Shown here piece by piece: positions 1 through 63,781 of a stretch of 64,000 bases of DNA (position 1 is the stretch's first letter; every line of letters begins with the position of its first letter). The position numbers and the translations under genes were made by a program. The notes under the pieces were generated by a model, which did not search any database, was not told the origin of the DNA, and saw nothing but the letters and a program-made list of their open reading frames with translations. The stretch lies in NCBI GenBank assembly GCA_021234155.1, contig JAJEKV010000023.1, positions 8,252,610 to 8,316,609 on the forward strand, written 5' to 3'. This stretch comes from Isoetes taiwanensis (lineage: Eukaryota > Streptophyta > Lycopodiopsida > Isoetales > Isoetaceae).

Positions 1-542
1 TACATAGAAGCAGAGGTCGGATGTGGAGAGTGTGTGCAGGATTTTGAGCATACAGGGATCTTACTGTCGTGAAAAAACCGGCAGGAGGCTTGGAGTAAAA
101 TCGCATGAAAATAACAGAATAGGGTGGATCAAAACAGAGAAGGCGCGAAGTTAGCCTTAATTGGCTCTAGCTGAGTCGACTTGCTTGAAGAAGGAGAATC
201 GGTTGTTGCCGAAATCTTCTAGTGCCCTGTCTTGTAGCAGAAGGAGTATTGGAAGCAAGATTACAGGAGCCGTGATTGTTGGAGGCTGAGAACTGGAAAT
301 ATAACTGGGTTCAATTCCCAGCCTCAAGATAGGACCGAAAGTGTTGCAAAATGATAGCTGAGGATTGGAGAAACCGGATAGAGAATCCAGATTGGGTGTT
401 GCTTTCTGGTTGGATCCTGCTGCAGGTACCGCAGCCAGCTTGTTACAGAGATATTTTACTGAGAAGTTTTGCTGCGAAGGAGAATTTGTCCGGTAAGTCT
501 AAGCATAGATTGGGTCTATTTTATTGCCTTGAATTTCTATCA
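1..542 (+). repeat. 5' LTR of the outer copia element (left end outside window)
   Basis: Matches 7195-7730 along its length, with scattered substitutions and short indels. It ends in CTATCA immediately before the initiator-Met tRNA primer site. At 305-321 it contains CTGGGTTCAATTCCCAG, a perfect 5-bp stem with a 7-base loop resembling a tRNA T-arm; the other LTR has the same at 7495-7511. Confidence 0.93.
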
Positions 543-543
543 T

Positions 544-554
544 TGGTATCAGAG
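544..554 (+). other. Primer binding site (initiator Met tRNA)
   Basis: TGGTATCAGAG one base after the LTR end. This is the standard plant Ty1-copia minus-strand primer site, complementary to the 3' end of initiator methionine tRNA. Confidence 0.9.
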
Positions 555-565
555 AAAAGTTCGCC

Positions 566-2244
566 ATGAAAAAGGATTCAGCAGCAGTTTCTTTGACTAT
601 TGATTCCGGGGCAGAAAGAACCGTTATTGCATCAGAGAAGTTGATAAAGAAATTGAAGGAGCCTGATACCCCTTGCGTACAAATGGGAAATGGTAATTTA
701 CATGAAGTCAAGGGTTATGGAATTTGGAGTTCTTTCACAATGGTGAAGAGAAAGTGAGTCTGGAAAACGTATTGTATACTCCTGGTATGTTGTTCAATTT
801 AATTTCAGTAGCAGACTTGGTAGATGCAGGGTACAAAGTAAACTGATGCATCTCGTTGCGAAATGGTGGGTAATGGTAGAAATATATATGCTAGAAGAAG
901 GGGTAAATTATATTGTTTGGATGCTTTTCCTTGTATTGGGAGTATTAGCTCTCTAGAATTGTGGCATCTGAGGTGTGGTCATGTGAGTGATGGGACTATA
1001 AAAATCATGAGCAAACATGAATTGGTAGAGGGTTTGCCTACCAACATAGATGCAAGTGAACATAGAATATGCCATGGGTGTATGCTTGGGAAGCAGACTA
1101 GAAACACTTTCCGCCTCCTTGCGTTGCTAAAACATTAGGAATTTTGAATTTGGTGCATAGTGACTTGTGTGGTCCGATGCGTGTTCAAAGTATGAGTGGC
1201 AAAACATACTTTATGACATTCATAGATGATTTTTCTCGGAGGACGAAGTGTTATTTTTTGAAATCAAAGGATCAAGCATTCCAGGCATTCCAATTGTATC
1301 AGGCAGAAGCAGAACGAGAGACGTCTAGAAAGTTGAAGCGCTTGCGCTCAGATTCAGGGGGAGAATATATGTCTGGGGCATTCATGCAGTTTTGTCGTGA
1401 GAAGGGGATTCGACATCAATTTACTTGTAGGCATACCCCGCAGCAGAACGGTATTGCCGAGAGAAAGAACAGAACTCTTATGGATGCAGTAAGATCTATG
1501 TTAAAGCATGCAGGGTTACCAAACTATTTGTGGGCAGAAGCAGTGCAGGCTGCATGCTATATCCAGAACAAGTTACCGTCGTCTGGTATTGAAGGAAGAA
1601 TTCCTGAGGAGGTGTGGTCTGGAAAAAAACAGTCTGTGGAAAGATTGCGTGCATATGGTTGTTTAGCATATATGCATGTACCCGAAGTATTGCGATCTAA
1701 GTTAGACGATCGAAGCATAGAAACTTATCTTGTTGGTTATGAGGAGCAGGGATACAGATTGTATGATCCCAAAACTAGAAAGATCTATGTAAGTCGAGAC
1801 GTGGTGTTTGATGAAACTAAGTTCTATAGAGATAGAGTTGTGACACAAAGTTTGGCACCGAGAAAGGAAGAAAATCAACCTTGGGCTCCAATAGGTTGGT
1901 TTGACGATGATGACGATGACATAGAAAAGGAAGAACATCCAATAGAAATTGTACAAGCTCAAGAGGTAGACGATAATGATGTGGAGGAGCAACCGGAAGG
2001 CGGAATATCAGAACTAGAAGATCGAAGTATGGAGATAAGCTTGGAAGAGCAGACTGAAGAACAGGCAGAAGAATTAGAGGCAGAAGAATTAGAACCTGTA
2101 AGTGTAGAAGAGCCGTCCATGGAAGAAACTCATTTGCATAGAAGTGATGCAGAAAGATTGAAGCAGGAAGTATCTTTTGATACATCACTGTATGGGAGAA
2201 ATGAGCATGGTAGAAGTACTCGTGAGCGTAGGCCACCATCAAGA
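566..2244 (+). pseudogene. Copia polyprotein, first half: protease, GAG-pre-integrase, integrase
   Basis: Three frame segments make up the half. 566-757 has the aspartic protease active site IDSGA. 863-1138 carries the GAG-pre-integrase zinc-finger pattern (H-x-R-C-G-H ... CHGCMLGK). 1144-2244 is the integrase: HSDLCGPM, the first Asp in FIDDFSR, the second in SDSGGEY, and the Glu in QQNGIAERKNRTL, which is the D,D-35-E arrangement, then the GCLAYMHVP C-terminal region and an acidic Glu-rich linker towards RT. The segments are separated by a stop at 755, a frame change near 841 and a stop at 1136. Reading ends in the nested element, which enters after an Arg codon at 2242-2244. The gag domain expected upstream is missing. 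Confidence 0.9.
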
Positions 2245-2799
2245 TGTTAGGGGTTTTCCACCCTTTGAATGCATTAGCACTATGGCTATTAAATTTGAAG
2301 ACACTATCATTATTGGCATGGGTCCACATCATCAAATGTTATTCATATTCCTATTGGTCCATGTCAGTGATCCTCCCACATCATTGCCATGTCATTGATC
2401 CATGGGAAAAGGCACAAAGAAGAAACACAAAAACTACCCTTGGTCCATGTCATGTGCCACATCACTGCCATGTCATTGCCACCTAGGCCATTCTTGTTTA
2501 TAAATAGGCATTTTACATGACTAAAGAGGGATCATGTATGGAGCGAGAGAGAGATCATTAGTGAAGAGCATGATCATGTGGGTATTCTTGTTGTATCTTG
2601 TGAATTTCAATAAAGAAGTGCAGTTTGAGTATCTTTTGTGATGTTCTTGTAATGTAAGTGTGGATGTAAGTGTGCTTTTGATTATCTTAATTCTGGGTGA
2701 GAGGCAGAGTTAAGTGTCTTAGTTTGTGTGCTGATGAAGGCCTTCGGGCCAAGTCCAAGGTCTTGAATTCTGTCTTGAAAGGGAGATTTTCCCTTAACA
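2245..2799 (+). repeat. LTR of nested element, left copy (plus orientation)
   Basis: TGTTAGGGG ... CCCTTAACA, 555 bp. It holds a TATA-like TTTATAAATAGG at about 2498-2509 and an AATAAAG signal near 2609, so U3-R-U5 order reads left to right. A tRNA-Asp-like primer site follows it. Confidence 0.9.
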
Positions 2800-2802
2800 T
2801 TT

Positions 2803-2819
2803 TGGTTCCGTTGCCGGGA
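2803..2819 (+). other. Primer binding site, tRNA-Asp-like (left arm)
   Basis: TGGTTCCGTTGCCGGGA, three bases after the LTR end. It resembles the TGGCGCCGTTGCCGGGGA site complementary to tRNA-Asp used by plant Athila/Tat-type gypsy elements, with a few changes. Confidence 0.75.
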
Positions 2820-2852
2820 CCTTGGACGTTTCAGCAAGGTTTCTTGATCCAA

Positions 2853-3626
2853 TCAAAGTGCAGTTTGGACACATACTTCATTTATATTGCCATTTTGAAG
2901 CTCCTGGATTTTCATAAAATCATCAAGAATCATTTTAACATTTCCTATTTTGTATGGATCAACCTCATTGCTCATAGAGTTGCCACTTCCACATGAATTT
3001 ACATAGTCACATGTACTATGTTTCTTATCACAACTTTCCTCAAGTCTATATTCCTCCATTTCGTTCATCTCTTGTGCCTTACTATGCACAGAGCTCTCTA
3101 GTTCTAGTTCTTCATGCTTCCTAGCACCTAGAACTCTTTTAACCACAACAGCTCTCTGGACTGCTTGGTCTAATGTAGGAGGATTTTCTATTTGTAACCT
3201 TTGGCATACTTCAAATGGAAATCCATTAATATACCATTCAATTATATCTTCTTCATGCGGTCTGGGTTGCATTTCTGCAACTATATCTTGAATTCTCAAA
3301 GCAAACTCTCGAGGATGTTCTCCTTCCTCAATTTTCATTGTATCCAATATTTTTCTACATTCTCTATATGATAATTCTTCTTTGAACATGGAAATAAAAT
3401 AACTTTTCATTTCATTCCATGTAGACATAGAGTCAATATTTGAGTACATCAGGTTAGCGGCTACACCTTGCAAGGTTGTTGGGAAGATCAACACCCTTAT
3501 AGAGTCTTCGTCATGCCCATTTAACATGCTTAGAGCCTCGAATTGCTTTACATGAGTTTTTGCTCTCACCTTGTGAGGATCATCATGATCATAGAAGGAA
3601 TATTTTAAAGCCATTTTTTTTTTCAC
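2853..3626 (-). pseudogene. Truncated gag of the nested LTR element
   Basis: A 257-residue open frame. Its middle looks like the Retrotrans_gag capsid family: a DDPHKVRAKTHVKQFE segment, then FPTTLQGVAANL, MSTWNEMKSYFISMF, and a GEHPREFALRIQ ... EEDIIEWYINGFP segment. This pattern is typical of Athila/Tat-like gypsy gag. The C-terminal zinc knuckle is absent: at 2873 the frame runs out of gag and into the antisense of the leader, picks up about six unrelated residues and stops. Protease, RT and integrase are missing altogether, so the element must have moved in trans. The assignment to gypsy rests on gag style and primer site, not on a pol gene. Confidence 0.75.
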
Positions 3627-4808
3627 GTTTGTTTCAAATTATGTTTGTTTTGAAGTAATTTGAAATGCAAGACTGAAAAAATCTAGCTCATTACATTTCA
3701 AAATCCATTTTTGCTCAAAATTTGTGTTAAGCTGGATTTGAACTAATGACTTTGGAGTTTACAAACAAAGCCTTTACCAATTATCCACCATATATATTCC
3801 TTATCTGAATATATATAAATTATAAAGTTATATAAGATTTTCTTTATGTTAACCCTTTGAATTTTTATTTTTTATTATTTTTTTTTTACTCGTTCCTTTT
3901 CTTTGCGCGCGGGATGCGGTTAGGGTAAAAATCCGGCCTCCGCTTCTGGTTCTGCTCACCTATCTGCGCCGCCTCTCGGGTCGGTCTAGTCGGAGGCTTG
4001 CTTCTTTGCTCAGATCTGCTGTGTTCCCCTCTCTAAAATGATAACCTGGCTTTCTTTGGATGGTTCTTTTAATCAGGAGAGTCGGGACAGAAATCAGATG
4101 GTAACAAACGGATATGGCAAATCAGAGCATATTAGGTATCGGCCATTGGCGAGTATCTGCTGTACACATCATGTTTTTAGCATCCCACATCTGTTCTGTT
4201 AACTCTGAAATCTTCTGCAGAGTTTGGCTATCACAAGAAATCACTTTTGACTTAGCTTTTGCAATGTGTTTTTGCAATTGGTATGGCAATGAGAGGTTAC
4301 ACCAAAGATTTGTCTATGAGAATATGAATTTTACATGAACCTTACAGTTTCCTTCTTTTTGTTTACAAGAGAAATCCACAACAAGATTTAAGCATTCTGG
4401 GAGGTCTTCGGGAACTAGGAAGCTTACGTAACATGTAGCTTTTCAAGCAAGGAAGGTAACTTGCTTTACACCCTATAGCTTTATTTCTTCTAAATTTATA
4501 TCACGGGAATTCCAAAGAAATGGGGTTTCAAGAACATCTCGAGAAAAGAAACTTGTGCGTAAGAGGCTTCGTTACGTTTTATAGAGAGCCGAGTTTCCAA
4601 GAGAATAACTCCTTTGTATATCGTGCTTTTCTGATTTTAGAATTATGCAACGTATAATGTTCAATCTGGAAACCATTTGAGTTTATATAAATATAGAGAT
4701 TTGAACTCTAGAGAATTGTTTTCTTTTTGTAATAACATGAGACCTTTTGTCCTAAACCTGATATATAGAACATGGAGATTGTAATTCATTTGAAACTTTG
4801 TTGAAATT
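3627..4808 (-). other. Leader region between primer site and gag of the nested element
   Basis: No gene recognised; only short random ORFs. On the minus strand at about 3729-3795 there is a tRNA-like stretch (ATAATTGGTAAAGGC, then about 30 bases later TTAGTTCAAATCC) resembling weak A and B boxes, but the stems pair poorly. A GC-rich patch lies at 3905-3995. Confidence 0.4.
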
Positions 4809-4862
4809 TGTGTCCAAACTGCACTTTGATTGGATCAAGAAACCTTGCTGAAACGTCCAAGG

Positions 4863-4879
4863 TCCCGGCAACGGAACCA
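4863..4879 (-). other. Primer binding site, tRNA-Asp-like (right arm)
   Basis: Exact inverted counterpart of the site at 2803-2819, at the same distance from the right LTR. Its presence on both arms shows that both ends of the element derive from the 5' end of the parent element. Confidence 0.75.
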
Positions 4880-4882
4880 AAA

Positions 4883-5437
4883 TGTTAAGGGAAAATCTCC
4901 CTTTCAAGACAGAATTCAAGACCTTGGACTTGGCCCGAAGGCCTTCATCAGCACACAAACTAAGACACTTAACTCTGCCTCTCACCCAGAATTAAGATAA
5001 TCAAAAGCACACTTACATCCACACTTACATTACAAGAACATCACAAAAGATACTCAAACTGCACTTCTTTATTGAAATTCACAAGATACAACAAGAATAC
5101 CCACATGATCATGCTCTTCACTAATGATCTCTCTCTCACTCCATACATGATCCCTCTTTAGTCATGTAAAATGCCTATTTATAAACAAGAATGGCCTAGG
5201 TGGCAATGACATGGCAGTGATGTGGCACATGACATGGACCAAGGGTAGTTTTTGTGTTTCTTCTTTGTGCCTTTTCCCATGGATCAATGACATGGCAATG
5301 ATGTGGGAGGATCACTGACATGGACCAATAGGAATATGAATAACATTTGATGATGTGGACCCATGCCAATAATGATAGTGTCTTCAAATTTAATAGCCAT
5401 AGTGCTAATGCATTCAAAGGGTGGAAAACCCCTAACA
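4883..5437 (-). repeat. LTR of nested element, right copy (minus orientation)
   Basis: Reverse complement of 2245-2799 and the same length. The translated arms agree over the long stretches I compared, with one substitution noticed. It precedes the leader and gag in minus-strand order, so this is the 5' LTR relative to gag. Confidence 0.9.
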
Positions 5438-5442
5438 CAAGA

Positions 5443-7092
5443 TTTAAAGAGTATGAATTAGGAGGCAGCGCACGGGAGCAACGGCCACCTACCGTGTCAA
5501 GCGTCATGGAGCCTAAAACATATGATGAAGCTATCAATTCAACAGATGCAGATAAGTGGAGGAAGGCTATGTGTGAAGAACTCGAGTCATTCAGACATAC
5601 AGGTACCTATGATCTTGCACCTCGACCGAAGGAGAAGAATGTGGTCGGATGTAAGTGGATTTTCAAATTAAAGAAAGGACCGGACGGGAAAATTGAAAGG
5701 TACAAAGCAAGACTTGTAGCTCGTGGTTTTACACAGAAGTATGGTAAAGATTATCATGATACATTTTCTCCTATTGTCAAGCTAACAAGTTTGCGAGCTT
5801 TAATTGCTTTAGCAGTAGAGCATGACTTGGAACTTGATCATATGGATGTAAAGACCTGCATTCTGAATGGAGATTTGGATGAAGAGATCTATATGGAGCA
5901 GCCAGTTGGCTTTGAGGTGCAAGGTAACAAAGTCTGCAAATTGAAGAAAGCAGTGTATGGGCTTAAGCAAGCGGCTAGACAATGGTATGTATGCATAAAT
6001 GGGTTTCTATTATCTCAAGGATTCGAGAAATTAGAAAGTGAGGGTAACTTGTACATAAAGAAAGTAGATGGTAAATTCTGCATTATTGCTTTATACGTTG
6101 ATGATTGTGTTATGAGCGCAAGTGATCGAAGTATTTTAGATGATTGCAAAGCTATTTTGAAAAATAGATTTCAAATGAGTGATCTCGGTGGTTTGAAGAA
6201 ACTTTTGGGTATGGAGGTTTATAGAGATAGACAAGCTGGAGTGTTGATCTTAACACAGGTACAGGGTATTAGAAAAATGCTGGATGATTTCTTTATGACA
6301 GAGTGTAAGCCAGTACCAACTCCTTTGGTGGTTAATAAGAGAATATGTGGAGATATGTCTCCTGTGACTATTGAAGACAAGAGAAAAATGCAAAGAATAC
6401 CATACAGGGAACTTGTCGGGAGTTTGCTATACGTGGCAAATGCCACTAGACCAGACATTGCATTTGCAGTAAATTTATTGAGTAGATATTTGAATAATCC
6501 AGGCTGGGAACATTGGATTGCAGCTAAATGGGTTCTTAGGTATCTAAAGGGTAACGTTAAAAGCTTGGAATCTGTTATACTAGAAGTCACGACAAAAATC
6601 CTGAGGTGGTCGGTTATGCAGAATTAACTGGCTATACAGATGCAAATTGGGCTGGAGACTTAGACGAACGCAAATCCCAAATGTGGTATCTCATGTAAAC
6701 TCAACGGAACAGTTATCTCATGGTGTAGCAAGAAACAGAACTGTGTGGCGATGTCTAGCGCAGAGTCTGAATATGTATCTGCATCTCTGGCAAGGAGAGA
6801 AATTGTTTGGTTGAGGCGATTATTGAATGAATTAGGAGAAAAACAGTCATGCCCAACAAAATTATATTGCGATAATAAGAGTTGCATTGCCATTGCTAAG
6901 AATCCTGTGTTGCATTCGAGGACGAAGCATATTGATCTTCATTATCATTACATCAGGGAAATAGTTGCCAGAGGTGAAATTGACTTGCAATATATAGCTA
7001 CAGGTAAACAACAAGCAGATATTTTAACGAAGGCATTGAATGAAGGAAAACATCTACAATTTAGAAAAGACATTGGCATCACAGGAAGATAA
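5443..7092 (+). pseudogene. Copia polyprotein, second half: reverse transcriptase and RNase H
   Basis: Reads on from the nested insertion. RT (RVT_2) is recognisable from WRKAMCEELESF, VGCKWIFKLK, YKARLVARGFTQ, KAVYGLKQAARQWY, the catalytic ALYVDDCVMSA, the MSDLGGLKKLLGMEV region and YRELVGSLLYVANATRPDIAFAV. The frame is lost near 6570-6620, just after VLRYLKG. RNase H continues in another frame from about 6630: GYTDANWAGDLDERKS-like residues, then MSSAESEY, LYCDNKS and SRTKHIDLHYHYIRE. The coding end at 7092 is 18 bases before the 3' LTR. The frameshift makes RNase H untranslatable as part of the polyprotein. Confidence 0.92.
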
Positions 7093-7098
7093 ATGCTG

Positions 7099-7110
7099 GC
7101 TGTGGGGGAG
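7099..7110 (+). other. Polypurine tract of the copia element
   Basis: GCTGTGGGGGAG directly before the 3' LTR start TGTTGG; the usual position for the plus-strand primer. Confidence 0.85.
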
Positions 7111-7730
7111 TGTTGGAAATCGGCATCCAGCATTCAGGATGACGTGGCAACAAATAAAAAAAGAAAAATTGGAGGAAGCGGTGTGCAAATAAGATACATA
7201 GAAGCAGAGGTCGGATGTGGAGAGTGTGTGCAGGATTTTGAGCATACAAGGATCTTACTGTCGTGAAAAAACCGGCAGGAGGCTTGGAGTAAAATCGCAT
7301 GAAAATAACAGAATAGGGTGGACGAAACAGGAGAAGGCAGAGTTAGCCGGAATTGGCTCTAGCTGAGTCGACTTGCTTGAAGAAGGAGAATCGGTTGTTA
7401 TGAAATCTTCTAGTGCCCCGCCTTGTAGCGAAGGAGTATTGGAAGCAAGATTACAGAGCCGCGGATTGTTGGAGGCTGAGAACTGGAAATATAACTGGGT
7501 TCAATTCCCAGCCTCAAGATAGGACTGAGTGTTGCAGTCGGATAGCTGAGGATTGGAGAAACCGGATAGAGAATCCAGATTGGGTGTTGCTTTGTGGTTG
7601 GATCCTGCTGCAGGTACCGCAGCCAGCTTGTTACAGAGATATTTTACTGAGAAGTTTTGCTGCGAAGGAGAATTTGTCCGGTAAGTCTAAGCATAGATTG
7701 GGTCTATTTTATTGCCTTGAATTTCTATCA
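7111..7730 (+). repeat. 3' LTR of the copia element
   Basis: 620 bp, TGTTGGAAAT ... TTTCTATCA. Apart from the first 84 bases it aligns with 1-542. Flanking sequence resumes at 7731 (TATGC...). Confidence 0.93.
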
Positions 7731-8587
7731 TATGCTGATTGGAATACTCCAACTTCTAGGACTTAGTTTTTGCTGGTTGAATGTTGGGAATTAAATGGCC
7801 TTATTATCAGCAGACATGTCATCTCTAGAATATTTGAACGGTTTAGTCCTACCCACATGCTCGTTATCAGTTGTGTTGGTGTTGGGATAGGGCTACTAAT
7901 TGTCCAAATTGTTGCTTCGTGGATCTTATTGCATTGTCCTGCATTGTTGGTGGTCCATTGCCAACTTCACTGTCTAGCCCACTTCATTGCTAGTGGATTC
8001 AGATGCATAAAACACTGAGTTAAGCTAAGGCAATGCTTACATAGTTACATATACACAGAAGCCAAGTCAGCAACATTTAATTGCTGCTGTAAAGTTTCCC
8101 TGGGTAGAGGGGAAGGTAACCGTGAGAGCCAATAATTCATACATGTGAGAACCTATGTCTGGTTGTGTAGTGTATTAGTCTTAGATGTATCACTATAGGC
8201 ATGCAACAAGTGTGCTGCCTTGCAATAAAAGTGTTCTTGAGGATTGCAAATCCAGAACGGATGTAAATGCACAACTAAAAAGCATGCACCATAGTCAAGG
8301 CCCAAGACCTTTCTAAAAAAACACTTGCTCTATGTTTGCCCAAAATCAAAGGAACTTACAATTTCCAAATCTTTCAAAAGACACAATCAAAAGATAGATG
8401 TACATCAAAGGACATGTCAATGGCTTACGTCTAAAATCTGTCTTGTGGCACGTTATAGTTGGATTTAATAAGAAATTATAAGCCACGCCATGTATCCCAA
8501 TTTCTTAGAGCTTCAATTCATTACTTGAGTGTTTGATCTGTTTTCCTTGAGGGGGCACCTTGTCCTTTTGTGAATCTCCAATTTTCT
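7731..8587. other. Gene-free flank
   Basis: Only short ORFs with no recognisable motif. Confidence 0.5.
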
Positions 8588-9628: not shown

Positions 9629-12600
9629 ATGAGACGATTACATTGCACTCAAAATTATAAAATAAGTCATCCAGTGCGTCCTCAGAGAACAACACACTGG
9701 GCTCCTCTACCTCAATCTCCGTCACCCTTTGTTGCTTCATCAGGACCTCTCTATGGTTAAGAATGTCCATAATACAACCTCCAATGCATGAGCCTGCCTG
9801 TCGAAAGAAATCAACAAGCGAAATAGCACTGACCCCATGCTTGACCCGGATATCCGAATAAGCGCGACAAAAAAGCAGGACATGGGCCTCATCTTCTACT
9901 ACTCCCGCATCACATAGCTGACAATGTCTAAGATCATGCGCGCCAATCCGCCCATCTCCCGATCTCCACACCAAGTCGGTGTGAGCTCAACCGTATTCTT
10001 GCGATTGCATGCCTAAGTTTCAGCGATATGGGTTCCCTAAGATAATGCGGCTTCTTGCGAGAGATGGATTTATGTGAGCCTTATAATACTCTTTCTTCAC
10101 AACCGGGCACGCTCCATGACTTACTCAAGAAACTATCTCGAACCCAACCACTAATGTCCTCTTTGTGCATCTCCAAATCTCGTATGTTCATCCCCCATTT
10201 CATAAGCCATCTGTCTATATCCGCACACCAGCTTTTTACTTACGGTTTCCTCTAAAGCAAGTCTAGGCAAGCTATTATTTAAGCATATCATATAGGACTT
10301 TGCACATATAGCGCAAGATAGTCTACAAAGAGCCTCTTCGAAAGTGGCATCATTCCACTTTCAACTAGCATCATGTCATATGGTGTTTGCATCTTTGTGC
10401 CCAACTCCGTATGAAAAAATTTCTTTCAGATATCTTTTCCACCTTTTGCCAGCTATCATTAGCAAGGCCTGGTCCCCAGACTTCATAGCCATATAGCACA
10501 ACCGTCTGGACAAGCACCTTGTAGAGCATATGCTTCATCTCAAAATTCCATATCTCTCTGCATTCACACACTTCCTTTGCATAGCATACAACGCTTTTAG
10601 ACCAAGATTCACCCTATGTTCCACCGCCTCGATTCCAATTAGGACTCTTATCTACGGTTAGGGCCCAAATATTTGTAATTCTCTACCACTTCCACTTGCC
10701 TATCCTTATAGTAGAATCAACATGTTCCGTCTTTTTGCCCCAAACACCCTTTGCCTTGGTCTTATCTAGATTCACCCAAGATGCCCTTATCCTCGCAAAA
10801 TGCTTCAAGCACATCCAAATGCTTTTGCATCCCTTGTATGCTCCGGGACAACAATACTACATCATCAGCATATAATAGAAGCATGAATACATACTCTCTC
10901 AGAGCGGTACCATCTCCCCCATGTGCTCGTACCCACCCTTCAAGTTGGTCTATGAATAAGTAAAAAGAGTAGGTGACAGTGGACATCCTTGCTTTACTCC
11001 CATATTGCTTTCTACCATCTCATCACATAACTCCACAAAGGGGAATGACAGCTGCACTAGAACCTTGCCATAAAGCACACCTACCGCATGTCTGAGCTCA
11101 ATCGGGATGTTCAGGTCTACCATTCTCTGCCACAAATTCCGCCTATTAACCATGTCGAAAGCTTTGCTAAAGTCTACAAAAGTAGCATACAGTGGTTTCT
11201 TCTTGCCGACTACTGAGTCCATCATAGCACGGAGAGTAACCAAGTGGTCAATTGTGGACTTTTTGGGTCTAAAGCCCGCTTGTCCAATGGCTCTAGCATT
11301 GTTATCCTCTGCCCAAGCACTTATCTTGCGCTCAAGGATAGAAGCGAATAATTTTGCATATAGACTGCCAACCATAATAGTGCGGTAGTTACTCGGATTG
11401 GATACTTCCCCTGATTTATGTAGCGGTACCACCCTATTCACCTGCCAGGATGTTGGAAAGCCATCTCTCAGTGCCATATTAAACATATCTATCAGCTTAA
11501 GTGCTACTTCTTCTCCTGCCCATTTAAGCATTTCAGCCATAAGACCACAAGCGTCTGCAGCTTTGCCATTGGCAAGCCTTTTAAGCCCATCTTGCACATC
11601 GCCTATGAGTGAAAGCAAGTGTATCCGATATAGCATATGTGTCTTCATTTGCCTCCATCATAGCTTACGCCTCGGGGAACATTATACGACTTACATTACA
11701 TGTGCCATAAGTGCCTCTACATGTAATCCATCCGTTCTATATTTCATGGGTTTGAGTCTTCTCCAGAACTTCTTCGGATCTACCAGCAATTCCTCCATCA
11801 TTTTCTTATGTTTCTTGTATAGGTATGCCTTCTTTTTATTTTTAATCAGCCTAATGTATATCCTCCGTTCACATGCTTTCTCTGCCCCCTTCGCCGCTCT
11901 AAATTTTGCCCTCTGATGCTTGCACTGCGCATCGAACCAGCTATTGCAAGGCAGCCCCATCCTTTGACGATATGATACAAAGCAACTATCCGCTGATTGC
12001 AACAAAATCTCGGACAATGCATCACTTTTTCCTTGTAATGTGTCAGGCCATACAATAGAAGTCACTTTATGTTCACATATATCACCATATTTATCTACTT
12101 TGTCGTATTTCAAATATATTCGTTTGCTTTTATGTATGGCTTCACCCTTACAGCTCCATTGCACCTTAATCTTTATAGAGATGGGCACATGATCTGAATT
12201 TTCATTTTCATCTCCAATTGACATACCAACAAGCTGTTCGGCAAAAGAGGGTTTGGCAATGACATAATCTACTACACTGGCATTTCTGCAGTACGTTTGC
12301 TCGATCCGGGTATCTAGCGGTGCCATTAAAGATTACCATCTCAAAGCCACTACACAAATGCAAAGACATGACGCCCTGCGGTGTTGGCCATTTCACACCA
12401 TCATCTAATAACCTTGTTGCGCCCTGATTTTTTTTTTAGTTCGTCATTATCCATCATCTCCAACCACTCTGTTTCTCCATCCGGACTAACCATAGCTGCC
12501 TGTTGGTTTCCCGTTCGTCCATTAAAATCCCCTAACAATACTACTTCCCCCGCCATGCTCGGTGTTAGTATATCCCGCCCGGATGAAAAAATGGGTCATC

Positions 12601-61908: not shown

Positions 61909-63781
61909 AGTAGAACTCCAGCAAGGTTTCCATTTGAACCAGAATAAAGACCCTTAAGAGCTGCCTGCAAAAACCTGCATATGCATAACACGATATCGTC
62001 TATAACCGTAATAAAAAATCCTCAAACAAGTATCTTAAAAATAGAAGTTACAATAAGAAAGAACTAGATAGTTAGGCATTACCCACCAAACAAAATATGA
62101 AGAAAGTTAGCGGACAAGACTGCAGCAGGTTACGGCAGGGTGAGGGTCCGCTACAAGACTTTCTTGAAGTTGGAAGCGACAAGACTTTCTTGAAAGGACA
62201 CAAGCAACTAATTCTCAACATAATTCAGCTAAATCATGCTGAGCCTAAACCGAGAAAATAATTTTCAACAAACAAATTAAATAACGCCAAATGGATATTT
62301 AACTGTTCCAAAGAGGAATTGTCAATTCTATTGCATCCATACTCCTTGGGAAGGCTTAGTCAACAGTTTAGAGGATCCCTATGCAGAGGTATCCTATTAT
62401 ACTGAGCATATGCACAGCCCTAAACATGACAAATATATTCTGATGCAATTGCCTGGAATTGGGAAGCTGCCAAACTATAATACTCCACCTAGCCACTAGT
62501 TTAGAGGATGCCTATGTCTAGCCACTAGTCTATGCAGAGGTACCCTATTATACTGAGTATAATCACAGACCCTATAATCCAAGAGAAGAGAGGAGGCTTA
62601 CAAAGCAATATGCAGAGTCATAACCTCAAAAACGAACCAAGAATTGACCTTGTTCCAGCACATATACGTTCTTTACCAGTTTGCAACATTATGTGCTGAT
62701 AATAATTGATTAAGATAAACCTAGGAAAGAAATGGCAGGCTGAAGAAGCGATGAGTGGCCAGATTAGAGATACAGAATGCTGCATTTTCATATAGAATTT
62801 TTGGTTCTGCAACACATCAGCAGGTTACGGCAGGGTGAGGGTCCACTACAGGACTTTCTTGAAGTTGGAAGCGACAAGGCTTTCTTGAAAGGACACAAGC
62901 AACAATTTTCAACATAATTCAGCTAATCATGCTAAGCCCCTAAACGGAGAAAATAATTTCAAACAAACAAATTAAATAACGCCAAATGGATAGTTAACTG
63001 TTCCAAAGAGGAATTGTCAATTCTATTGCATCCATACTCCTTGGGAAGGCTTAGTCAACAGTTTAGAGGATCCCTATGCAGAGGTACCCTATTATACTGA
63101 GCATATGCACAGCCCTAAACATGACAAATATATTCTGATGCAATTGCCTGGAATTGGGAAAGCTGCCAAACTATAATACTCCACCTAGCCACTAGTTTAG
63201 AGGATGCCTATGCAGAGGTCCCCTATTATACTGAGTATAATCACAGATCCTATAATCCAAGAGAAGATAGGAGGCTTACAAAGCAATATGCAGAGTCATA
63301 ACCTCACAAACGAACCAAGAATTGACCTTGTGCCAGCACATATACGTTCTTTACCAGTTTGCAACATTATGTGCTGATAATAACTGATTAAGATAAACCT
63401 AGGAAAGAAATGGCAGGCTGAAGGAGCAATGAGTGGCCACATTAGAGATACAGAATGCTGCATTTTCATATAGAATTTTTGGTTCTGCAACACATCAGCA
63501 GCAAGGTATGTAGATCAAAATGTGGATTGACTACCATTATTGTCCTACATATAGCAAAGGGGGACGTTTTGGTCTTTCAAATTCGAATCATTAATGTAAA
63601 AGAGTCATAGCCATATGCTGATGCATTGAGCTCAAATCGCCCCTTCTTATTTCATGCATTGAAGGCAGCTGGCAACTCAAGAGACATACAGACTGGCATA
63701 CCTTTGTGTTGACGAATTAAAAGCCATAGACTGCATAATTGCCATATAAAGGCTAGCACCAGAGAAATTATCACTCAGGCC
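61909..63781 (-). CDS. Possible exons of an unidentified gene
   Basis: Two minus-strand segments with good splice signals. 63781-63702 reads GLSDNFSGASLYMAIMQSMA and further between a CAG acceptor and an AAG|GTATGC donor. 61964-61909 reads AALKGLYSGSNGNLAGVLL between TTTTTGCAG and GTAAGT. Their phases do not join directly, so another exon would have to lie between, in or near the 695-bp duplication. The residue composition looks coding, but I recognise no family. Upstream exons would lie beyond the right edge of the window. Confidence 0.3.
62123..63497. repeat. Tandem duplication, period about 695 bp
   Basis: Copy 1 is 62123-62817 and copy 2 is 62818-63497, both starting CAGCAGGTTACGGCAGGGTGAG and ending in CTGCAACACATCAG. 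Identity is high, with point changes and small indels. Inside each copy a smaller repeat (TTTAGAGGAT..CCTATGCAGAGGT) occurs twice. The paired ORFs at 62618-62815 and 63296-63493 come from the duplication. Confidence 0.93.

What the first reader, a model, noticed from the sequence alone, without database searches (positions are those of the whole stretch)
2245..5437. Retrotransposon integrated with inverted LTRs and a perfect 5-bp target duplication
Two 555-bp LTRs face each other, and identity extends through primer site and leader (629-bp arms), so both termini are U3 ends of the same parent 5' end. The insertion is flanked by CAAGA on both sides and has TG...CA termini, so integrase apparently used two U3 ends. 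A normal copy has direct LTRs with one U3 and one U5 end. Such a molecule could come from an intermolecular strand switch or self-primed palindromic cDNA during reverse transcription.
Basis: partly seen in the sequence, partly recalled or inferred. Interest (0 to 1): 0.78.

Follow-up and report, generated by a model that had tools for sequence, protein, structure and literature searches.

The report
Jumping gene integrated with mirrored ends
A short plant retrotransposon whose two end repeats point towards each other instead of the same way appears to have been inserted in one step into another retrotransposon, which suggests that two front parts of its DNA copy had been joined head to head before the integration enzyme pasted them in.

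Summary
Observation confirmed. Window 2245-5437 is a 3193-bp insertion in a tandem copia array. Two 555-bp LTRs face each other; with primer site and leader the arms are 629 bp, matching at 628 positions. CAAGA flanks both sides, and 5 of 5 host paralogues compared have an uninterrupted site with one CAAGA, so one integration event is indicated. Both termini are U3 ends.

Related loci have direct LTRs: 20 direct against 2 inverted neighbouring pairs among 65 U3 starts. Both arms carry a leader base found at 2 of 12 genome matches, the arms themselves, suggesting one parent. The inner junction spans 1 of 40 reported matches, the window itself, and shares no bases at the join.

Best reading: two 5' cDNA ends were joined head to head before integration, by reverse-transcriptase strand switch or end joining, and integrase used two U3 ends. 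The joining step is unresolved.

A second inverted-LTR copy (L008) has its own target duplication, other junctions and a 16-nt U5 end, so inverted-LTR cDNA probably formed at least twice. New variant of a known kind (aberrant pre-integration cDNA), not a new system. Raw reads were not available.

The parts
2240..2244 (.). left target-site duplication CAAGA
   Evidence: empty site with a single CAAGA in 5 of 5 host paralogues compared
2245..2799 (+). left LTR (555 bp), U3 end outward
   Evidence: same U3 start at 65 genome sites with up to 3 mismatches, the two arms included
2803..2820 (+). primer-binding-site-like segment after a TTT spacer (tRNA partner not tested)
   Evidence: sequence; identification rests on recalled LTR-element anatomy
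2821..2873 (+). leader, left copy, up to the junction; private G at 2838
2873..2874 (.). novel junction between inverted leader and gag-like segment; no shared bases exactly at the join
2874..3626 (-). 5' part of a gag-like ORF: 251 codons that align with the start of the 366-aa ORF of L001; cut by the junction, after which 6 residues are read from the inverted leader (ORF 2853-3626, 257 aa)
   Evidence: Pfam Retrotrans_gag below its gathering score
3627..4808 (-). internal region without a long ORF, colinear with other copies
4809..4861 (-). leader, right copy, in normal continuity with the internal region; the private base at 4844 (G in element sense)
4862..4879 (-). primer-binding-site-like segment, right copy
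4883..5437 (-). right LTR (555 bp), U3 end outward; identical at 555 of 555 aligned positions to the 3' LTR of L004
5438..5442 (.). right target-site duplication CAAGA
1144..2239 (+). host copia ORF, integrase part (Pfam rve), before the insertion
5443..6627 (+). host copia ORF, reverse transcriptase part (Pfam RVT_2), after the insertion

Best explanation
This is one integration event of a rearranged derivative of a short LTR-retrotransposon family (gag-like ORF, no pol in the copy checked) whose linear cDNA was a head-to-head fusion of two 5' ends. One part ran from U3 through LTR, primer site, leader and 5' gag. The other ran from U3 through LTR and primer site and stopped 74 nt past the LTR. 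Shown by sequence: the fused structure, both U3 termini, the 5-bp target duplication with its empty site, direct LTRs in other copies, and one variant shared by the two arms and by no other of 12 genome matches. Inferred: the fusion existed before integration, both parts came from RNAs of one parent locus (or one molecule), and integrase paired two U3 ends. Not resolved: how the parts were joined. My split is about 50% strand switch of a nascent plus strand onto another (or its own) plus strand during reverse transcription, 35% end joining of two incomplete double-stranded 5' cDNA fragments, and the rest other pre-integration routes.
For: Arms 628 of 629 identical, CAAGA on both sides. Empty site uninterrupted in 5 of 5 host paralogues compared, the best (L020) 99.67% identical over 601 bp. 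The leader G at 2838 is found at 2 of 12 genome matches, both of them these arms; 10 of 12 have T, and in the arm alignment 13 of 13 other leader rows have T. Three other copies (L001-L003) match the internal region over its whole length and in order; 17 of 17 loci that reach the switch point continue past it with gag sequence, not leader. Of 23 fetched loci with two or more recognised LTR pieces, 22 are direct and one, L008, is inverted. The joined sequence 2821-2960 is spanned by 1 of 40 reported matches, the window itself. The second inverted copy, L008, has TSD CCTTG and other junctions. An HIV-1 integrase paper compares U5/U5, U3/U5 and U3/U3 end pairs in vitro and says that U5 pairs were preferred (PMC8742673, passage seen).
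Against: No raw reads. No parent copy with the private G was found, so 'one parent' rests on one base plus near-identity. A hairpin from self-priming would still need a second strand, for which there is no evidence. The junction has no shared bases, which is not typical of homology-guided strand switches. L008 ends in a short U5 piece, so it does not repeat the U3-U3 arrangement. The in vitro passage reports a preference for U5 pairs, not for U3 pairs.
Confidence: 0.86

Rival explanations
1. Post-integration rearrangement: a normal minus-strand copy inserted at CAAGA, and later its left (3') LTR was replaced by an inverted copy of its right end through template switching or gene conversion in the chromosome.
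For: The right arm, leader and gag-like segment are in normal order, so only the left end is abnormal. The arms are near-identical.
Against: The inverted tract would have to end exactly at the last base of the element, leaving CAAGA and the host flank in normal orientation with no homology to guide it. A chromosomal copy tract would be expected to run on into inverted flank. The host is uninterrupted outside the TSD.
Confidence: 0.06
2. Two independent insertions in opposite orientation, followed by deletion or recombination between them.
For: Two LTRs in opposite orientation; nested insertions are common in plant genomes (background knowledge).
Against: One perfect TSD with an empty site and continuous host flanks. 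A leader variant seen at 2 of 12 genome matches, both being these arms.
Confidence: 0.02
3. Assembly or library artefact (fold-back read, mis-oriented repeat).
For: Raw reads were not seen. Internal regions of this family vary at scattered short motifs in a way that could be base-calling noise (impression).
Against: A fold-back would give mirrored flanks, but the two flanks are the two sides of one copia pol region. Mis-orientation of a normal copy cannot put U3 starts and a TSD on both sides. The arms differ at one base. The locus lies inside a 19.7-Mb contig.
Confidence: 0.04
4. Autointegration: integrase joined one cDNA end to a site inside the same or another cDNA, giving the inversion, and the product was then integrated.
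For: Autointegration gives deletion or inversion circles (PMC2644782, passages seen). The left junction of L008 lies about 4 nt after an LTR end, at a T-run.
Against: In the window copy the inner junction lies 74 nt past the LTR, not at a CA end. Autointegration products are described there as circles, and this copy has two U3 termini with a TSD.
Confidence: 0.02

Closest known systems
Template-switching complexes of LTR retrotransposons (Sabot and Schulman 2007, PMC1950507, whole text seen)
   Same: Proposed aberrant reverse transcription between packaged templates, one integration event, flanking 5-bp TSD, highly similar outer LTRs.
   Different: Those have a third, internal LTR and two core sequences, explained by a switch between R regions. 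This is a head-to-head fusion of two 5' ends with two LTRs, two U3 termini and a non-homologous junction.
Autointegration products (inversion circles) of retroviruses and retrotransposons (PMC2644782, passages seen; the Ty1 study it cites is not held)
   Same: Extrachromosomal cDNA can carry inverted segments.
   Different: Circular dead-end products made by integrase at a CA end. Here the junction is inside the leader and the product was integrated as a linear molecule.
DIRS-1 and relatives (PMC5633606, two passages seen; the rest recalled)
   Same: Retroelement flanked by inverted LTRs.
   Different: Inverted LTRs are the full-length form of DIRS-1, which encodes a tyrosine recombinase and integrates from circles; absence of a TSD is recalled. 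Here other copies have direct LTRs and there is a 5-bp TSD.
Locust Gypsy-25 element (PMC8786324, passages seen)
   Same: The paper says that its classic structure has an inverted pair of LTRs.
   Different: The passages give no TSD or junction data for it and call the inverted pair the normal form; I could not test what is meant. Here inversion is the exception in the family.
Gag-only non-autonomous LTR elements of plants (TR-GAG type, recalled, no paper seen)
   Same: LTRs plus one gag-like ORF and no pol in L001.
   Different: The window copy is a rearranged derivative that also lost the gag 3' part, polypurine tract and 3' LTR.

Membership tests
LTR retrotransposon (canonical copy) | Long terminal repeats with TG...CA ends | tested here: met
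   555-bp LTRs, TGTTAGGGG start and CCCTTAACA end
LTR retrotransposon (canonical copy) | LTRs in direct orientation | tested here: not met
   Window copy is inverted; 20 of 22 neighbouring U3 pairs within 10 kb are direct. Hence it is described as a rearranged derivative, not as a canonical copy
LTR retrotransposon (canonical copy) | 4-6 bp target-site duplication | tested here: met
   CAAGA with empty site in 5 of 5 paralogues compared
LTR retrotransposon (canonical copy) | Primer binding site matching a host tRNA, and polypurine tract | tested here: inconclusive
   PBS-like segment present twice, tRNA not tested; G/A tract before the 3' LTR in the 14 copies printed, lost from the window copy
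Gag-only non-autonomous element | gag ORF, no pol | tested here: inconclusive
   L001: one 366-aa ORF, the other two ORFs of 80 aa or more are under 100 aa; Pfam gag at E 0.005, under the gathering score, so the gag name is tentative; other copies not checked for pol except L025 in part
Template-switching complex (Sabot and Schulman) | Single integration (TSD) and highly similar outer LTRs | tested here: met
Template-switching complex (Sabot and Schulman) | Internal third LTR and two core sequences | tested here: not met
   Two LTRs, inverted, one core
DIRS-type element | Inverted repeats as the normal form, no TSD (the latter recalled) | tested here: not met
   TSD present; 22 of 23 fetched loci with two or more LTR pieces are direct
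DIRS-type element | Tyrosine recombinase | not tested
   No long ORF besides the gag-like one in the window copy; no recombinase search was made

The most novel reading that the evidence does not exclude
Head-to-head cDNA dimers made of two 5' halves are a recurrent by-product of this family, and the integrase that serves it accepts two U3 ends in vivo. This would give a natural route to long palindromic, hairpin-forming insertions from an ordinary LTR retrotransposon.
Probability: 0.4. Interest if true: 0.65.

Novelty: new variant of a known kind. Interest (0 to 1): 0.52.

Why it matters
It looks like a chromosomal record of integrase using two U3 ends, which I otherwise know from test-tube reactions (one HIV-1 passage that compares end pairs, PMC8742673; the rest recalled). 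It suggests that cDNA of this family was sometimes joined head to head before integration. Such insertions carry 0.6-kb inverted repeats that could make hairpin transcripts (small-RNA sources, inferred). They would probably be missed by annotation programs that look for direct LTR pairs (inferred), so their frequency is unknown and could be measured.

Tried and rejected
Other copies with the same junction: none among 40 reported matches, apart from the window itself. U5-U5 copies: 55 U5 sites (all matches with 0 or 1 mismatch out of the 82; the 27 two-mismatch sites were left out) gave 14 direct, 2 inward (the two inverted copies) and 0 outward neighbouring pairs within 10 kb. Microhomology at the switch point: none at the exact join; TGAA is shared 3 nt away, judged not meaningful. 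A single-strand fold of 2810-2940 gave nothing (z -1.03). An autonomous partner was not found, but little was searched: of the ORFs of the 8.4-kb copy L025 two stretches were scanned, one giving a weak gag match and one nothing; its longest ORF (297 aa, minus strand) was not scanned. Variants strictly private to the two L008 arms: none; two rare ones are shared with L009 and L015.

Literature: all ten paper searches were used. For the LTR-orientation terms I opened the matching passages of PMC2151762, PMC8786324, PMC5633606, PMC3747184 and PMC3536649: primer geometry, a locust Gypsy element said to have an inverted LTR pair, DIRS-1, a chicken endogenous retrovirus with 'opposing LTRs' meaning its two LTRs, and yeast LTR clusters. 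The other listed papers of those searches were seen only as listings. None of what I saw reports an integrated U3-U3 LTR retrotransposon with TSD, but the locust statement could not be tested and most subscription papers are not held, so this is weak evidence of novelty. PMC9324142, PMC12789967 and PMC11054761 were seen as passages only.

Rows dropped: the arm alignment has 34 rows (two window arms, two L008 rows and 30 others from L001-L033). Left out wholly were LTRs of L014, L017, L018, L026, L027, L029, L034 and L035, and in part those of L002 (third LTR), L006, L007, L012, L015, L016 and L028; several of these are near full length, so counts are of the rows given. The genome-wide search does not depend on that choice. 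In one search, 5 host paralogues were compared out of 39 reported matches other than the window.

Full report
Observation. The window lies at G000:C1027:8252610-8316609, inside a 19.7-Mb contig of a 1.66-Gb genome. Between 2245 and 5437 lies a 3193-bp insertion. Its arms, 2245-2873 and the reverse complement of 4809-5437, agree at 628 of 629 positions; the one difference is 2544 (C) against 5138 (T in element sense). At that site 31 of 32 other rows of the arm alignment have T and one has A, so the left arm carries the change. Past 629 the arms diverge. No other inverted repeat of 100 nt or more is reported in the window.

Single integration. CAAGA flanks both sides. The host is a copia element: integrase domain before the insertion, reverse transcriptase after it. 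I joined 301 bp of left flank to 300 bp of right flank and compared this with 5 host paralogues (L020-L024; one search reported 40 matches and gave loci for the best 6, one being the window). All 5 run through without interruption with a single CAAGA; L020, about 15 kb away in the same contig, is 99.67% identical over 601 bp. Chance identity of five flanking bases at this spacing is 92 of 60,787 positions.

What the element is. The internal region read on the minus strand is colinear with other copies; L001-L003 match it over its whole length, others in part. L001 spans 3755 bp, has direct LTRs, and has AAATA before and AAATC after it, so no perfect TSD. It has one 366-aa gag-like ORF; its two other ORFs of 80 aa or more are under 100 aa. 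The Pfam gag match is E 0.005, under the gathering score. Direct copies with clear 5-bp TSDs include L009 (CTTTT), L010 (GAAAC) and L011 (AGTTG). Among 65 U3 starts found by pattern, neighbouring pairs within 10 kb are 20 direct, 2 outward-facing inverted and 0 inward; these are pairs, not elements, and two loci with three LTRs give two pairs each. The two inverted pairs are the window copy and C1002 (L008). Read locus by locus, 22 of 23 fetched loci with two or more LTR pieces are direct and L008 is the exception; six fetched loci (L005, L030-L034) show one LTR piece only.

Junction and parentage. At the switch point 17 of 17 loci that reach it go on with gag sequence (most with ...GAAGTA|GAATTC or ...GAATTA|GAATTC); the window copy goes on with TGTGTCC, the reverse complement of the leader. 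No bases are shared exactly at the join. The joined sequence is spanned by 1 of 40 reported matches, the window. In the leader both arms have G at 2838/4844, where 13 of 13 other leader rows have T. A genome-wide exact search allowing G or T gives 12 sites: G at 2, both of them the arms, T at 10. Copies with other changes inside that 26-mer are not counted. Both arms therefore most likely descend from one parent RNA source or one molecule; this rests on one base plus near-identity. The right LTR equals the 3' LTR of L004 at 555 of 555 positions, so these two are very close. One difference in 629 would mean roughly 60,000 years at a recalled rate of 1.3e-8 per site per year, an order-of-magnitude figure only.

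Second inverted copy. L008 (C1002:94600-99250) has a left LTR at 2305-2858 and an inverted LTR at 3862-4417, with leader and about 0.93 kb of internal sequence between. Its right end continues as TATTT and then AGATTTTCCCTTAACA, the last 16 nt of a U5 end, and then CCTTG, which also flanks the left end. TATTT is the complement of the AAATA that precedes U3 in 13 of the 14 copies printed (GAATA in L013). This end junction is found once in the genome (up to 1 mismatch). L008 thus has a U3 and a U5 terminus and different junctions, lacks the private leader base, and carries two rare LTR variants shared with L009 and L015. I take it as an independent event (inference). It supports formation of inverted-LTR cDNA before integration, but it does not repeat the U3-U3 use. 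Its empty site was not tested.

Mechanism. Because the target duplication sits exactly at both U3 ends of an otherwise abnormal molecule, the abnormal structure was most likely already present when integrase acted. A linear duplex with two 5' ends could come from a plus strand switching onto a plus strand (intermolecular, or on itself), or from end joining of two incomplete 5' cDNA duplexes. The junction alone does not separate these. Pairing of like ends has been examined in vitro for HIV-1 integrase: the passage says that U5 pairs were used in preference to U3/U5 or U3/U3 pairs (PMC8742673, one passage).

Comparison. Template-switching complexes in cereals (PMC1950507, read in full) share the single integration with TSD but have three LTRs. 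Autointegration gives deletion or inversion circles (PMC2644782, passages). DIRS-1 has inverted LTRs as its normal form and a tyrosine recombinase (PMC5633606, passages). A locust paper says that the classic form of Gypsy-25 has an inverted pair of LTRs (PMC8786324, passages); no junctions or TSD are given there, so I cannot tell whether that is comparable. In ten searches I saw no report of an integrated U3-U3 LTR retrotransposon with TSD; only open-licence papers are held and most listed papers were not opened.

Limits. No reads, no second accession, no other plant genome and no named organism. Counts of repeats are lower bounds according to the tool. Short-motif variation inside the family may partly be base-calling noise, so base-level ages are uncertain.

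Noticed in passing
L008 (G000:C1002:94600-99250), 2305-4438: Second inverted-LTR copy with CCTTG on both sides, U3 left end, and a right end made of inverted LTR + TATTT + last 16 nt of U5. Six differences between its LTRs all lie in the last ~110 bp of the left LTR, next to the junction.
   Followed up: partly
G000:C1027:8236685-8260349 (window 1-7740 is its last part): The host copia forms a head-to-tail array: five RT segments and six LTR-like segments, period about 3.97-4.0 kb; the inverted element sits in the last unit. Looks like units sharing LTRs.
   Followed up: partly
L002 (C1067:976700-981550), 3465-4564: Copy with two LTRs in direct contact at its 3' end, 10 bases missing at the LTR-LTR joint, GCAAC at both outer ends: resembles a two-LTR junction made by end joining.
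   Followed up: no
L012 (C1025:10333100-10338450), 230-900: LTR and first 11 nt after it joined directly to the region before the polypurine tract and a further LTR; GAAAC at both outer ends. Another aberrant multi-LTR copy.
   Followed up: no
L028 (C1039:7308000-7312000), 3317-3850: Both LTR pieces are preceded by the polypurine-tract sequence, as expected for the inner LTR of a multi-LTR complex.
   Followed up: no
window 3870-4720 against L001-L004 and L008: Differences between close copies cluster at short CAG/CTG/CG-type motifs with small indels, as if base calling were disturbed at methylated sites (impression, not counted).
   Followed up: no
window 10950-11648, minus strand: Reverse transcriptase ORF of RVT_1 type (Pfam E 2e-13), LINE-like.
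   Followed up: no
window 62244-63501: Direct repeats of 222 and 294 nt with spacings 695 and 678, 97-98% alike.
   Followed up: no
L031 (C1068:4420500-4428000), 3275-3860: LTR followed by 16 nt of the primer-site region and then sequence not recognised as this family, starting AAAATATGTTAAGGG, possibly another element's end.
   Followed up: no
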